Positions 2,883 through 30,641 of a stretch of DNA of 43,517 nucleotides are shown piece by piece. Under the pieces are notes generated by a model that was not told where the DNA came from, ran no database searches, and saw only the letters and a program-made list of their open reading frames with translations. Position 1 is the first letter of the stretch; each line of letters opens with the position of its first letter. Location of the stretch: positions 1-43,517 of the forward strand of contig JAQXJR010000005.1 of the NCBI GenBank assembly GCA_029009055.1, given 5' to 3'. Both the position numbers and the translations under genes were made by a program. The stretch comes from Eubacteriales bacterium (GTDB taxonomy: Bacteria; Bacillota; Clostridia; Peptostreptococcales; Anaerovoracaceae).

Positions 2883-3005
2883 GATGGGAGGAATCAATAT
2901 CGAGTCAATATAATTGGTTGATCATGAGGTTCGGGTGATAGCGTGGTGGAGCAGTGGCGGATTTTGCTTTGCGGGTGCGAATCGCGATTTCCAGCATGTG
3001 TCAAG

Positions 3006-3083
3006 TTCTATAAAAATCGAGATTTATTGAAATTTTATAGAATAATTCTATAAAAACCGGCTATTATAAATGCTTTTATAGAA
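3006..3083. repeat. Two tandem hairpins built from TTCTATAAAA boxes
   Basis: TTCTATAAAA occurs at 3006-3015 and 3046-3055, and its reverse complement TTTTATAGAA at 3033-3042 and 3074-3083. This makes two hairpins of about 37 bases repeated with a period near 40. The inner pair also forms a tight palindrome, TTTTATAGAA-TAA-TTCTATAAAA (3033-3055). Such geometry suits dimeric protein binding or structured RNA. The binding factor is unknown. Confidence 0.8.
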
Positions 3084-3285: not shown

Positions 3286-3575
3286 GTTATTTCTTGAATA
3301 GATCCGAATGAGAACAGGTATTAACTAGACAATGTAAGTCTTCTGTTGGAGCGGGACTTTCAGGCTGTTTCCGAAGGTGTTAAAATCAATACATATAAAA
3401 TATTAGGGCGATGGCTGGTTTGCGAGATTGGTACGCGCGTATAAACATGCTTGCATTGGTATTGATATGCAAAGTGCATCTCGGAAGAAGTCCTGCTGGG
3501 CGACATCGGAGCCGCAAAGGGTCGAATCACAATTTACAATAAATGTCAAGGTCGATAAAAATTTCGGTTTTGTCG

Positions 3576-3602
3576 TTTTTTGTAGAATAATTCGATAAAA
3601 AT
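3576..3602. repeat. 27-bp direct repeat, copy 1
   Basis: Identical over 27 bases to 3807-3833. Its core is TAGAATAATTCGATAAAAA, which varies at one base from the 3039-3056 box. A further half-site TCGATAAAAA lies upstream at 3552-3561, so the order of half-sites repeats that seen at 3006-3056. Confidence 0.8.
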
Positions 3603-3806
3603 TTCCAATAACGGTTTGTATACAAAATGAATGTATCTTGATTGGCTAGCTATATGTGATACCGGACCGCTGCGGAAACGTGTTTTGCGCGGGATTCTTC
3701 GAAATTCGTGACATCATGGCTTATTATGCAAAGCTTAATTGCGATATGAAGCCTCCGGCTGGCTCCGCGGCGCGCATCACAAGGAGCTATACCCCAAAGA
3801 AAAATA

Positions 3807-3857
3807 TTTTTTGTAGAATAATTCGATAAAAATCGCGATTATTAAAATTTTTATCGA
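3807..3857. repeat. 27-bp direct repeat, copy 2, with hairpin before the 3912 operon
   Basis: Bases 3807-3833 repeat 3576-3602 exactly. The 3' part starts a perfect hairpin, TCGATAAAAAT (3823-3833) pairing with ATTTTTATCGA (3847-3857). It ends about 45 bases before the start codon at 3912, so it is well placed as an operator or leader structure for that operon. There is no GC-rich stem, so it is unlikely to be an ordinary terminator. Confidence 0.7.
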
Positions 3858-3911
3858 CTCAGCCCAGGCGAGCGCCGCCGCGGACATACATTAAAGGAAG
3901 AATTGAACGCA

Positions 3912-6200
3912 ATGAACGCAAGAAGGAGGACAGCAGAATATATGAGGTCGGCAGCTGCGGCCGCGATCGCCCTCTGCCTGGCGATCGCAATAGCCTTCGC
4001 GCTGCCAGTCACGGCCGCCGCTGCCTCCGAATCTAACGCGAGGCGCGCCGCAAACGCGGCTACCTCAAGCCAAGCCGCCGCTGCCTCCGGATCTAACGCC
4101 GGGCGCGCCGCAAGCGCGGCTACCGCAACCCAAGCCGCTGCAACGCGCGCAGCAAACGCGGCTACCGCAAACCAAGTCGCCGCAAAGCCTGAACGCACCA
4201 AGTTTAAAGCGGTCGCGGCAAAAGGCAAGGCGGCAGGAAGCGCGGCGGCAAAAAGCAAGACCAAAGCCGCTGCAAACGCGGCGGCATCAGAGGCGACCGA
4301 GGACGAGAGCGCTGCCGCGGAGCAGTTCGGGCCGTTCCATAACGACGACCCGTCCCGAAAATACGTGATGACCATTCCGTACTCCAACCTTAACAGGAAC
4401 CTATTGAGGAACGGGGTCGTCCTCGGATGGGGCGCCGGGATAGACACGGCGAAACAGGCTTTGGCGGTGAAATACTGGAAGCCGCTCTTTAAGACCGGCG
4501 CCGTCATCGCTGTAAACCGCAGGTACGTCCGGGAGGAAATAAACGACTGGAATGATTTGCTCGATACAGAAGAGAACATAGGAATAACGTCGGACATGCC
4601 GGACGCCTCGTACCTGTTCGCGGCCATGGCCTATGGGCTTAATGGCAGGAAGAAGGAGTACGCGCCGGAAGAAGCCGTAGAGCTGTTGAAAATACTGGCT
4701 CAGCGGGGTCAGCTCAGGGTGGCGGAGCAGGTGCCGAGCATAGATTACGCGGCGCCGATAGCTATTTGCTTCGACTACCAGGCAGCTATGGCGAAGGCAC
4801 AGGACAGCCAGATAGAGCTGATATGGCCAGCCGGCGGGACTCTTAGCTTCGTGAGGGGAGCGGCCTACGCGGAAAAGCCTAAGAAGGACAGTGAGGCGGT
4901 CGGACTCTGGGCGGCCAGGCTGGCGGCGAGGTCTAAGAAGAGCTTGATGGCGGCCGGGTTCAGGCTGACGACGGGCGAGGGGGACAGCAGGTTCTACCCG
5001 GCTAAGTCATTCATGAAAGCCAGAGAAGGCCAGCTCGACCCAGACGTGCTGAATACTTATACAGAAAGATATAAATCCATATATATCAAAGACGTGGCGG
5101 GCATGCTTTTCCCGTCTTCTCTCGACGCCAGGGCCAGCGAGATCCTGTCGTTCATCATGCTGATGGGAATCGTATTCTGGACCATATCGCTTTGCTTTAA
5201 GAGCAGCAGCGGCATAGTCGAAGACGTGGTCATCAAGGTCGGAACGCTTTGCGGTATATGGACGGCCTTCCGCATGTTCAGCTTCATGCTGCCGGAAGCC
5301 GGGATTTATAAGTATTTCCAGTATGGGTACATTATTTTTATTGTCATACTGACCCAGGAGATCCTGCGGCTGACCATAGTGATAGATCACCACCATGAGC
5401 CGAAAGTCGCGAGGAATGTGTGGCAGAGGCTGATTGAAGCGGCTGGCTGGGTCCTGAGCGCCCTCGTCCTGACCAATAAGTGGCACAGGCTAGTTTTCCG
5501 AGGCAGCAAATACTCAGGCAGATACATTTCTAATGAGGACCTGGGGCCGGTCTACCCGCTGATAGTTTTCTTCTGCGTGGCAGTGCTGGCGCTGGCCTTC
5601 GGGCTATTGATGAAGAAAATTTACGATAAGGGGAACAGGGTCAGGGCTATATTCCCGGCTGTCATCACGCTGGGCTTCTTCGCCGCATTCTTCTTCGGAA
5701 CGACCAGGAGTTTCTCGACCATATTCACAGACGAGACGGGTACTGTGATCCTCGTGGCCTTGCTGTTCGAGGAAGCCGCGCTCAGAGCGGGGATAATGAC
5801 TTTAGACAGCGTTTATGTTAAGATTTTCAAAGCGAATCCTCTTAAGATGATGATCGTGGAGAATAACGGGTCCCTGAAGTACGTCAGCCAGGCTATGAGG
5901 GAAGAGCTGAGCGGGGAGCCGGAGGACTACGAAGATTCCCTTAAGGGTAAGACTAAGATGGTTAAGGATAAGGCCCACGACGCAATCAGGGCTAAGGAGC
6001 TGGACAGGGCATTGAGCGGCCGGGTCCTGAGCAGAATGACTGAACAGGACGTGGACGCCCTGCTTCACGACATGACGGCTCCGCGCGTGACGGCGGGCGG
6101 CGAGATGTACAGGTCGGCGAGGATACCGGGCGGAGCGGTCATAGACTATGTCGGATCTGTCTGGGATGATCCGGAGGATGAGGAAGGAGGCGGGCTGTGA
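3912..6200 (+). CDS. Kinase-less sensor: solute-binding domain + 7TM + PAS-like
   Basis: Not a named family; the parts are seen as follows. Residues 1-35 are a signal peptide. Residues 32-137 are an Ala-rich low-complexity linker with repeated SNA(R/G)RAA units. Residues about 140-400 resemble the later part of a periplasmic binding protein of the iron/polyamine type (YWKPLFKTGAVIAVN, INDWNDLLDTE, PAGGTLSFVRGAAY), while the usual first lobe is short or absent. Seven hydrophobic segments follow at about 411-430, 440-460, 469-492, 503-529, 547-567, 578-597 and 609-629, like the 7TM input region of histidine kinases. A PAS-like core (MMIVENNGSLKYVSQAMREEL, about 645-666) and a charged tail end the protein. 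No HisKA or HATPase motif exists. Start choices are TTG 3903, ATG 3912 or ATG 3942. It overlaps the next gene by 4 bases, so the two are coupled. Ligand and output are unknown. Confidence 0.8.
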   Translation: MNARRRTAEYMRSAAAAAIALCLAIAIAFALPVTAAAASESNARRAANAATSSQAAAASGSNAGRAASAATATQAAATRAANAATANQVAAKPERTKFKAVAAKGKAAGSAAAKSKTKAAANAAASEATEDESAAAEQFGPFHNDDPSRKYVMTIPYSNLNRNLLRNGVVLGWGAGIDTAKQALAVKYWKPLFKTGAVIAVNRRYVREEINDWNDLLDTEENIGITSDMPDASYLFAAMAYGLNGRKKEYAPEEAVELLKILAQRGQLRVAEQVPSIDYAAPIAICFDYQAAMAKAQDSQIELIWPAGGTLSFVRGAAYAEKPKKDSEAVGLWAARLAARSKKSLMAAGFRLTTGEGDSRFYPAKSFMKAREGQLDPDVLNTYTERYKSIYIKDVAGMLFPSSLDARASEILSFIMLMGIVFWTISLCFKSSSGIVEDVVIKVGTLCGIWTAFRMFSFMLPEAGIYKYFQYGYIIFIVILTQEILRLTIVIDHHHEPKVARNVWQRLIEAAGWVLSALVLTNKWHRLVFRGSKYSGRYISNEDLGPVYPLIVFFCVAVLALAFGLLMKKIYDKGNRVRAIFPAVITLGFFAAFFFGTTRSFSTIFTDETGTVILVALLFEEAALRAGIMTLDSVYVKIFKANPLKMMIVENNGSLKYVSQAMREELSGEPEDYEDSLKGKTKMVKDKAHDAIRAKELDRALSGRVLSRMTEQDVDALLHDMTAPRVTAGGEMYRSARIPGGAVIDYVGSVWDDPEDEEGGGL

Positions 6201-7015
6201 TACAGTTATACAGAGCGCCATACGCCTTACTACTCGTGCTGGAACTCGTGACCATACTCTGTTTCGCCGGACAGGCGTCTGTGGCTGCTGCCAACTGGTT
6301 TTACGACCACAGGGGCATCAGGAGGTTCCTCTACGACATGGCAGAACTGGTCCAGATGGCTTACATAGGGATCACGGCCTTCGTCATAGCCAGGTTGATA
6401 AACACGGTCTCCTATGGCATGTTTATATCCACGGATCAGCCGAAACTAAGGTACGCCCTGTTCGGAGCCATGCTGCTCCTGCTCGTGTCTTGCAGGACGG
6501 AAGATGACACGGAGATGATGTGGGAGAAGGCCATGCTGGCGGTGCTGACTCTGCCGATACTCACAAGGGTGTGGGGCAGGCTGCTCGCTCAAGCCTTGCT
6601 CATAACTATGGTAATTTGGATGGTCCTGGAACTCAGGGAAATCATGAACCTGGTTGACAGAGTGTCCACAGAAGCTGGCGCGTTTTCGGTGAGAGTCGCT
6701 CTCAGCAGAGTAAGCATCGGGCTCATGCTTTGCGGGAGCAGAGGGCGGACTTTCTTTGCAAATAAAAAGATGGACATAGTTACTAACGACCTGTTCGGGG
6801 AGAAGTGCCATAGCGGCGCGGAATTCGAGAGGCTGCTCCGGGAAAAATATGGAGTTGACCTTCCTGAGGAAGGCGAGATAATAGTGAGAGGACAGATAGC
6901 CGACTGGGCTATAGCCAGAAACAGGGTCTATGTCAGGGGCAGGAAAATAGTTCAGATCAGCGCTAACGAAGTGATAACGCCGGATCTGGCGGATGAGCCG
7001 GAGGAACGATCATGA
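6197..7015 (+). CDS. Membrane protein with C-terminal PAS-like domain, no kinase
   Basis: A 272-aa protein that I cannot name. It has about five hydrophobic segments (roughly residues 10-31, 49-68, 86-98, 111-124 and 128-146). A cytoplasmic region at about 170-260 (IGLMLCGSRGRTFFANKKMD, then ADWAIARNRVYVRGRKIVQI and SANEVI) resembles the PAS-type segment that precedes HisKA in some Firmicute sensor kinases. It stops exactly where HisKA would begin. The GTG start at 6197 overlaps the previous stop by four bases and has AAGGAGG six bases upstream. The stop overlaps the next ATG. Tight coupling suggests a heteromeric membrane sensor with the 3912 product and a soluble DUF2284-type partner. Function is inferred from architecture only. 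Confidence 0.78.
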   Translation: MIQLYRAPYALLLVLELVTILCFAGQASVAAANWFYDHRGIRRFLYDMAELVQMAYIGITAFVIARLINTVSYGMFISTDQPKLRYALFGAMLLLLVSCRTEDDTEMMWEKAMLAVLTLPILTRVWGRLLAQALLITMVIWMVLELREIMNLVDRVSTEAGAFSVRVALSRVSIGLMLCGSRGRTFFANKKMDIVTNDLFGEKCHSGAEFERLLREKYGVDLPEEGEIIVRGQIADWAIARNRVYVRGRKIVQISANEVITPDLADEPEERS

Positions 7016-7539
7016 AACTTACTATGCTGGAGAAAGAAGTCCCGATGGATGAGTTTTATCCGAAATACGTGGACGTGAAGAAGTTTACGGCGCTTTGCGA
7101 GGAGTGCCCGGAATATGGGAAGTCATGGTCATGCCCGCCGATCATGTTCGACGTGGATAAGGTGTGGCAGTCCTATAGCAGGATCCATATCTGCCTGCTG
7201 AAGATGGACATAGAGCCGACGGACGACCCGGCTAAGATCTACGACATGTTCAGGGGTAATCAGCATATCATCTCAGCAAAGATATATGACATGGAGGAGG
7301 CGACTCCGGGCAGCCGGGCGCTTATACCTGGACCATGCGATTACTGCGGAGAAGGAAACTGCGCGAGGCTCGTCGGGAAACCGTGCAGGATCCCGGCTTA
7401 CATGAGAAACTCTATGGTATCCATGAGCGCTGATTGTTCGGCTACGGCCAGGGACTTCTTCGGGCTGGATCTGGAGTGGCCGAAGGACGGGAAGCCGCCT
7501 GCTTTCATGTCCATGTTCGGGGCTTTGCTAATTAAGTAG
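7012..7539 (+). CDS. DUF2284-like cysteine-rich metal-binding protein
   Basis: Soluble 175-aa protein of the DUF2284 type (predicted metal-binding). Two cysteine groups are visible: Cys29, Cys32 and Cys41 in the CEECPEYGKSWSCPP motif, then Cys109, Cys112, Cys117 and Cys125 with Cys142 further on. This pattern could hold an iron-sulfur cluster or zinc. The start ATG overlaps the upstream stop in an ATGA junction and has GGAGGA about seven bases upstream, so it is the third gene of the 3912 operon. The family has no settled function. Being coupled to two kinase-less membrane sensors hints at a metal- or redox-responsive role (inference). Confidence 0.85.
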   Translation: MKLTMLEKEVPMDEFYPKYVDVKKFTALCEECPEYGKSWSCPPIMFDVDKVWQSYSRIHICLLKMDIEPTDDPAKIYDMFRGNQHIISAKIYDMEEATPGSRALIPGPCDYCGEGNCARLVGKPCRIPAYMRNSMVSMSADCSATARDFFGLDLEWPKDGKPPAFMSMFGALLIK

Positions 7540-7588
7540 AATCGTGGTCTTTCTTTGAGACATTAGGTATACATCACAGAGCGTTAAT

Positions 7589-7631
7589 GACGGAGACGGT
7601 TGGATTTTCAATCGTTTCCGTCGTTTTTTAT
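7589..7631 (+). terminator. Terminator closing the 3912-7539 operon
   Basis: A 14-bp stem (7589-7602 with 7609-7622, two G-T pairs) around GATTTT, followed by GTTTTTTATTT. It marks the operon end and separates it from the PFOR promoter. Confidence 0.9.
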
Positions 7632-30325: not shown

Positions 30326-30641
30326 AATCGGAATTATAGGCGACAGAGAATCCGTATCAGGCTTTAAGGCTGTAGGTATAGACGTATTCACATGCGATTC
30401 CGGAGAGGCTGCTTCTAAAGCCCTTCGGGACATGGCTGATGACGGCTACGCCATAATATACATCACGGAGGATCTGTCGGAGAAGATCGAGGATGATATA
30501 GATAAATATAAGGATGTTATGTTACCAGCGGTCATTCCTATCCCTGGTAAAGGAGGTCCGTCAGGTAACGGGCTCAGAAACGTTAGTAAGGCAGTCGAGA
30601 GAGCTGTCGGTTCAGACATCCTTTTTGGTGGAGGTAAATAA
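30318..30641 (+). CDS. ntpG: V-type ATPase subunit F (NtpG, central shaft)
   Basis: A 107-aa central-stalk subunit with the Rossmann-like N-terminus of the family (MYKIGIIGDRESVSGFKAVG), AIIYITEDLSEKI and PAVIPIPGKGG. It is known as F in A-type enzymes and NtpG in E. hirae. It overlaps ntpC by 8 bases and abuts ntpA with no gap, so all three are translationally coupled. It binds subunit D in the rotor. Confidence 0.94.
   Translation: MYKIGIIGDRESVSGFKAVGIDVFTCDSGEAASKALRDMADDGYAIIYITEDLSEKIEDDIDKYKDVMLPAVIPIPGKGGPSGNGLRNVSKAVERAVGSDILFGGGK

What the first reader, a model, noticed from the sequence alone, without database searches (positions are those of the whole stretch)
3912..7539. Kinase-less sensor operon: binding-domain/7TM/PAS protein, membrane/PAS protein and cysteine-rich partner
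Seen: three genes joined by 4-base overlaps. The first product joins a signal peptide, an Ala-rich linker, a periplasmic-binding-protein-like domain, seven TMs and a PAS-like core. The second has about five TMs and a PAS-like domain that ends where HisKA would begin. Neither has HisKA or HATPase motifs. The third is DUF2284-like with eight cysteines. Known: 7TM and PAS segments are normal inputs of histidine kinases. Inference: a heteromeric receptor that has lost, or never had, a kinase and signals through the cysteine-rich protein or a kinase encoded elsewhere (for example at 722-2026). This is the best candidate here for an undescribed system.
Basis: partly seen in the sequence, partly recalled or inferred. 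Interest (0 to 1): 0.8.

Follow-up and report, generated by a model that had tools for sequence, protein, structure and literature searches.

The report
Two-component receptor that lost its kinase
This gene trio is the sensing half of a widespread bacterial signal-receptor system in which both membrane subunits have lost their kinase part, leaving a receptor that cannot phosphorylate anything by itself and is now coupled to a cysteine-rich protein of unknown job.

Summary
The core observation holds: three overlapping genes, A (binding domain, 7TM, PAS-like), B (TM, PAS-like) and C (DUF2284), with no kinase motif in A or B. C has nine cysteines, not eight.

Relatives explain it. With the window left out, their profiles score A at 256.6 bits and B at 91.7. 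In relatives, mostly Clostridia, A runs on into a dead kinase and B into a live one (phosphoacceptor His in 130 of 131), and a NarL/LuxR-type regulator stands directly behind B in 101 of 108 loci with room. Of 133 distinct A proteins reaching the PAS end, 132 keep the C-terminal part; only the window's lacks it. No remnant of either kinase part is in the window. An outgroup-rooted tree puts window A inside a kinase-bearing clade (98/97). So the kinase was lost, in both subunits, just after the PAS.

C was not found as a partner elsewhere. What stays interesting is the paired, clean truncation with open, translationally coupled genes. Whether it still works is undecided.

The parts
3551..3858 (.). 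MITE-like 308-bp element with imperfect 51-nt terminal inverted repeats, ending 44 bp before the first possible start of A
3903..6200 (+). Gene A: signal peptide, Ala-rich linker, binding-protein-like domain, 7TM, PAS-like end; no kinase (TTG 3903, ATG 3912 or ATG 3942 as start)
4014..4325 (+). Ala-rich linker of A (residues 38-141, 45% Ala)
4326..5102 (+). Solute-binding-protein-like domain of A (SBP_bac_6-like; boundaries approximate)
5121..5798 (+). 7TM region of A (HisKA_7TM-like; under the Pfam cut-off in the window, over it in 8 of 12 relatives scanned; boundaries approximate)
5811..6197 (+). PAS-like end of A, enlarged by a charged insert; relatives continue here with about 210 residues of dead kinase
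6197..7015 (+). Gene B: membrane part plus PAS-like domain; relatives continue into DHp and HATPase
7012..7539 (+). Gene C: DUF2284 protein with nine cysteines, in the place where relatives carry the response regulator
6152..6178 (+). 27-nt stretch at the truncated end of A that nearly repeats at the end of B
6981..7005 (+). Matching 25-nt stretch at the truncated end of B
7586..7625 (+). Intrinsic-terminator-like hairpin after C (18 pairs)
   Evidence: 3 such sites found in the region, 4.5 expected from shuffles, so a consensus match only

Best explanation
Shown: A and B are homologs of the receptor halves of a conserved operon of Clostridia, (binding domain)-7TM-PAS-dead kinase / TM-PAS-live kinase / NarL-type regulator. 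In this genome both kinase parts and the regulator are gone from the locus, and the cut falls just after the PAS-like part in both proteins. Inferred: the pair is still made as a membrane receptor complex. Ligand binding outside would still move the 7TM bundle and the two PAS-like ends, but no phosphate is passed. Any output must go by contact, most plausibly to the translationally coupled DUF2284 protein C.
For: Independent homology of both proteins (256.6 and 91.7 bits with the window left out). Order A-B with short overlaps as in relatives. 132 of 132 distinct relatives carry the C-terminal part of A. B kinase right behind A in 116 of 120 loci by script; in the other four it is present in the listings. 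Regulator profile hit of at least 100 bits in 104 of 108 loci with room, directly behind B on the same strand in 101. B kinase columns: His 130/131, Asn of the N box 125/125, a G-box Gly 123/123 (box names recalled). A's C-terminal part is homologous to it (hhalign 96.1%, E 3e-9) without those residues. Window A inside the binding-domain clade (96/80 and 98/97, rooted). For continued production: open frames on a long branch; coding-type codon use (GC3 0.71, 0.67, 0.70; frame scores above the other frames); a GGAGG site before B and C; conserved positions kept far more often than variable ones (A 28/44 against 48/308; B 14/28 against 15/157).
Against: Window A and B keep the smallest share of conserved residues of all rows compared and have the longest ingroup branches (2.99 and 3.48, against medians of 0.72 and 0.73 over all end branches), as relaxed constraint would give. 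The codon score of A is in the low range of the window's genes (0.046, or 0.092 without the linker; 21 of the 23 other genes listed score from 0.074 to 0.251, two score lower). The place of B in its tree is weak (47/55, and long branches meet). No relative without the kinase was found, so the truncated state is known from one genome only. No link of C to A and B was seen elsewhere. No expression, structure or selection data.
Confidence: 0.55

Rival explanations
1. Decaying relic: the system was switched off, the kinase parts and regulator were lost first, and A and B are on their way out.
For: Lowest retention of conserved residues and longest ingroup branches. Broken A genes occur in relatives (split ORFs in L079, L085, L092, L097). 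A MITE-like element sits right before A. 15 of the 16 other genomes of the genus searched had no A match at E 1e-6.
Against: About 900 codons of A and B are still open (628 of A from 4314 on, 272 of B). Two clean cuts at the same domain border with no kinase remnant left, coupling and ribosome sites kept, and coding codon use. Random decay more often leaves frameshifts, as it does in those relatives.
Confidence: 0.33
2. A and B act as a regulatory or decoy subunit for another histidine kinase of the cell, for example the one at 722-2026.
For: Sensor partners that steer another kinase are known (RetS blocks GacS autophosphorylation: PMC4866733, abstract start seen; the dimerizing mechanism is recalled). 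The own genome has five histidine kinases among eight HATPase hits, by reading their ORFs.
Against: The dimerizing helices of the kinase core are exactly what is missing. No kinase of the B type was found among the eight HATPase hits. The kinase at 722-2026 is complete and has its own regulator beside it.
Confidence: 0.08
3. The kinase-less form is ancestral and kinases were added later.
For: None found. The root of a gene tree is never fully certain.
Against: Window A nests inside kinase-bearing proteins in an outgroup-rooted tree (98/97), and all 132 distinct relatives examined carry the C-terminal part.
Confidence: 0.02
4. Assembly artefact or mis-called gene ends.
For: The genome is a 43-contig draft.
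Against: The cuts lie inside a 43.5-kb contig, the frames and overlaps are consistent, and no kinase sequence remains in the window.
Confidence: 0.02

Closest known systems
A-B-regulator operon of Clostridia (this report's name; e.g. Anaerotignum lactatifermentans L190, Ruminococcus bromii L218, Anaerobutyricum hallii L239, and Granulicatella balaenopterae L201)
   Same: Gene order A-B, short overlaps, 7TM plus PAS-like in A (with a binding domain in one form), TM plus PAS-like in B
   Different: Window lacks the dead kinase of A, the live kinase of B and the regulator, and has DUF2284 instead
HisKA_7TM sensor kinases (Pfam PF16927)
   Same: 7TM region aligned over residues 416-588
   Different: Under the Pfam cut-off in the window; no kinase follows
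LytS-type 7TM receptor kinases such as BtsS (PMC10653868, title and start of abstract seen)
   Same: Seven-helix receptor of a two-component system that reads a small extracellular molecule
   Different: BtsS is a single kinase protein; here receptor and kinase are split over two proteins in relatives and the kinase is absent in the window
DUF2284 proteins (Pfam PF10050)
   Same: C is an ordinary member with the seven cysteines that are invariant in the 11 proteins aligned
   Different: In the other loci examined it stands outside A-B operons
Pseudo-histidine kinases such as DivL (search listing and abstract starts) and the pseudokinase version of ChrS (PMC9491836, title and abstract start)
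   Same: Relatives' A carries a dead kinase that presumably steers a live partner
   Different: In the window even the dead kinase is gone

Membership tests
Two-component sensor histidine kinase | Phosphoacceptor DHp domain with His | tested here: not met
   No HisKA hit in A or B; no B kinase remnant in six frames of the window
Two-component sensor histidine kinase | HATPase domain with N and G boxes | tested here: not met
HisKA_7TM (PF16927) | Score over the curated cut-off of 28.6 bits | tested here: inconclusive
   21 bits in the window, 25.1 in the genome search; of 12 relatives' A scanned, 9 hit at 25.5-47.6 bits, 8 of them over the cut-off, 3 with no hit
SBP_bac_6 (PF13343) | Score over the curated cut-off of 24.6 bits | tested here: met
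   25.2 bits, only just over; PDB binding protein 5t1p by profile, E 1.4e-5. In relatives weaker: 5 of 9 A proteins hit at 13.5-23.9 bits, none over the cut-off, and L016 A has no hit
A-B-regulator operon of Clostridia | A with 7TM and PAS-like region | tested here: met
   256.6 bits with the window left out; the aligned stretch ends at residue 666, so the rest of the PAS-like part is aligned by eye
A-B-regulator operon of Clostridia | B membrane part and PAS-like domain directly behind A | tested here: met
   91.7 bits, residues 2-259 of 272, window left out
A-B-regulator operon of Clostridia | C-terminal dead kinase in A | tested here: not met
   Present in 132 of 132 distinct relatives, absent in the window
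A-B-regulator operon of Clostridia | Kinase part in B | tested here: not met
A-B-regulator operon of Clostridia | NarL/LuxR-type response regulator at the locus | tested here: not met
   In 104 of 108 relatives with room, 101 of them directly behind B (Response_reg plus GerE shown by Pfam for three); in the window the only regulator hit is the OmpR-type one at 2-583
DUF2284 (PF10050) | Score over 25 bits and conserved cysteines | tested here: met
   72.5 bits; seven invariant cysteines kept

The most novel reading that the evidence does not exclude
Both subunits of a two-component receptor were cut jointly at the same domain border and rewired: ligand binding is now read without phosphotransfer, through a translationally coupled DUF2284 metal protein. 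The 27-nt DNA match at the two cut ends would be the footprint of that event.
Probability: 0.25. Interest if true: 0.75.

Novelty: new variant of a known kind. Interest (0 to 1): 0.42.

Why it matters
If A and B are still under selection, this is a natural case of receptor halves kept after their kinase core was removed, which asks what 7TM and PAS modules can do on their own. The comparison also brings out a widespread parent system (dead-kinase 7TM receptor, live kinase, NarL-type regulator, sometimes a stand-alone receiver-like protein) for which I found no description in the papers searched.

Tried and rejected
A kinase moved elsewhere in the genome: eight HATPase hits in the own genome are, by reading their ORFs (names of the non-kinases from recall), five histidine kinases, GyrB, MutL and HtpG. 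The relatives' B kinase profile found only 29 bits (a kinase next to an ethanolamine ammonia-lyase-like ORF) and 16 bits (MutL) among those loci. None looks like a displaced B kinase. The profile itself was not run over the whole genome.

A conserved partnership with DUF2284: 74 of 349 family genomes have a match to C at E 1e-12. None of the 143 A stretches searched carried one at E 1e-5, and the 29 DUF2284 loci of other genomes examined, 2 to 3.5 kb each, carried no A or B.

Upstream repeats as operators: the repeated TAGAATAATTC[GT]ATAAAAA motif turned out to be part of a dispersed MITE-like family. Rfam found nothing in the window.

Close relatives of window A: none in genome contigs with the single protein, in viral contigs or in plasmids. 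A search of the 11 held genomes of a nearby family found seven genomes with a match (10 matches), all in open frames of 547-834 aa.

A narrow pattern for the kinase histidine motif fitted only 59 of 131 B proteins; the aligned column showed the His in 130 of 131.

Structure prediction of A and B could not be run: the machine was full at every try. Fold comparison was therefore not possible.

Selection tests: no close homolog was found in the data, so dN/dS could not be computed; retention of conserved residues was used instead.
Full report
What is there. Three genes read in one direction with 4-base overlaps: A (3903, 3912 or 3942 to 6200), B (6197-7015) and C (7012-7539). A has a signal peptide, a 104-residue stretch with 45% alanine, a binding-protein-like domain, a seven-helix-type region and a PAS-like end. 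B has a membrane part and a PAS-like end. C is a DUF2284 protein. Pfam finds SBP_bac_6 and a below-cut-off HisKA_7TM in A, nothing in B, DUF2284 in C, and no kinase domain in A or B. C has nine cysteines, not eight. Hydropathy alone gives five or six segments in A beyond the signal peptide and three or four in B's membrane part. A GGAGG site precedes B and C. A terminator-like hairpin follows C (such sites are no commoner there than in shuffles).

What the relatives show. A profile of the 7TM and PAS-like region of A matched 55 of 349 genomes of the same family and 42 of 393 genomes sampled from the order, many of them the same genomes. I fetched 63 stretches around places listed there; not every listed place was fetched. 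A scan of one genome per species found 93 relatives, of which the best 80 were kept, mostly Clostridia by record title and one Granulicatella. The profile of the first two searches covers only the part that the window has, so truncated relatives could have been found there. The scan ranked by a full-length protein, so a truncated one could be among the 13 dropped. In these loci the usual order is A, then B, then a NarL/LuxR-type response regulator. A is longer by about 210 residues than the window's, and B by about 200.

Counts. Of 133 distinct A proteins that reach the PAS end, 132 carry the extra C-terminal part and one, the window's, does not. Of 120 loci with more than 1,200 bases behind A, the script found a B with kinase in 116. 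The other four (L017, L079, L085, L141) do have it in the listings; overlapping ORF starts or frameshifts hid them. Of 108 loci with more than 2,300 bases, 104 hold a strong hit to the regulator profile: 101 directly behind B on the same strand, three (L019, L093, L133) on the other strand. L101, L136, L138 and L141 have none in the stretch.

What the missing parts are. In 131 distinct B proteins the aligned phosphoacceptor histidine is kept in 130, the N-box asparagine in 125 of 125 and a G-box glycine in 123 of 123 (box names recalled). Pfam's HATPase_c is hit weakly: over its cut-off in 2 of the 11 B proteins scanned, and not at all in one. The C-terminal part of A (127 proteins) matches the B kinase part in a profile-profile comparison (96.1%, E 3e-9) but lacks those residues and keeps its own K-R pair (127/127 and 125/127). 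So A is read as a receptor with a dead kinase and B as its live partner; this functional reading is inference.

Is the window really one of these? Profiles built without the window score A at 256.6 bits (E 3.2e-78) and B at 91.7 bits (E 4.1e-28, residues 2-259 of 272); the next best window ORFs are at chance. The A match stops at residue 666; the rest of its PAS-like end, which holds a charged insert, was aligned by eye and is less sure. B ends 13 residues after the match. A six-frame scan of the window finds no remnant of the dead kinase, the live kinase or the NarL-type regulator; the only hits at E up to 1 are the OmpR-type pair at 2-2026 and one at chance.

Loss, not ancient absence. A 55-row tree puts window A with the binding-domain form (98/81 and 98/93). 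A 48-row tree rooted on another 7TM protein puts it inside 18 kinase-bearing proteins of the binding-domain form (98/97) and beside three of them (96/80); its bootstrap had not fully settled. The window's branch is the longest within the family (2.99), so its exact place is unsure. The tree of B places it weakly (47/55) with a warning about long branches. A relative in the same genus, G014, has a complete operon of the other form, without binding domain.

Does it still work? For: about 900 codons of A and B remain open, codon use is of the coding type, and conserved positions are kept far more often than variable ones (A 28/44 against 48/308; B 14/28 against 15/157). Against: these are the lowest shares of all rows (next lowest 30/38 for A and 21/32 for B), and the codon score of A is low for the window. 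A fast-evolving but still constrained protein and an early stage of decay both fit. I lean to a receptor still made, with output by contact, and rate a relic at one in three.

A possible footprint. The last bases of A (6152-6178) and of B (6981-7005) align over 27 columns with two mismatches and one 2-base gap; the first part lies in different reading frames in the two genes, so the likeness is of DNA. No codon-shuffled pair of 2,000 reached the score of 32, and the next best of 378 pairs of gene ends has 22. Against it: one unrelated place (near 30421) scores 31 against the A end, and the core pattern is somewhat enriched in the window as a whole (8 matches with up to two mismatches, 1.5 expected; only these two are exact). 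So this is suggestive only. It may record the recombination that removed the kinase parts.

C. A match to C is present in 74 of 349 family genomes at E 1e-12, and DUF2284 four times in this genome. The best full-length matches are 31-38% identical, and in the 12 loci whose neighbours I read they lie in other surroundings. In two papers found with the name it is only listed: in a selenoprotein fusion with arsenite methyltransferase (PMC13188914, one passage) and as a protein of unknown function (PMC7883539, one passage). So C sits in the regulator's place here but was not found as a partner elsewhere.

Literature. Searches for HisKA_7TM and 7TM histidine kinases, pseudo-histidine kinases, 7TM kinases with solute-binding domains, seven-transmembrane pseudokinases in Firmicutes and kinase-less sensors listed no paper that, by title and abstract start, describes the A-B-regulator operon or a truncated pair. 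The listed papers were not read, and the library holds openly licensed papers only.

Verdict. It is a single truncated member of a widespread operon family, interesting mainly for the paired clean cuts and for the parent system.

Noticed in passing
window 3551-3858 and 2978-3082: MITE-like element family: the inner motif matches 27 times forward and 20 times reverse in the own genome against 0 in the reversed control; I count 19 places, 13 of them with a pair 230-262 bp apart (alignment of copies).
   Followed up: partly
L016 8468-8833, L190 10625-11017, L199 5493-5867, L204 5430-5810, L218 10215-10598 and others: Small stand-alone proteins beside the parent operons that match the receiver domain in a profile comparison (97.3%, E 2.5e-11) and look like pseudo-receivers; found in 36 of 141 loci examined, a few loci being the same place fetched twice. 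None in the window.
   Followed up: partly
L016-L019, L062-L101, L132-L150, L189-L268: The parent system itself, a dead-kinase 7TM receptor next to a live kinase and a NarL-type regulator, is widespread in Clostridia and not described in the papers listed by my searches.
   Followed up: partly
L079, L085, L092, L097: Relatives in which A is split by frameshifts or a stop codon while B and the regulator stay open.
   Followed up: no
window 6152-6178 and 6981-7005: Near-identical DNA at the two truncated gene ends, partly in different reading frames.
   Followed up: partly
window 4014-4325: Ala-rich linker of about 100 residues between signal peptide and binding domain, with internal repeats; the relative L016 has no such stretch by eye.
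   Followed up: no
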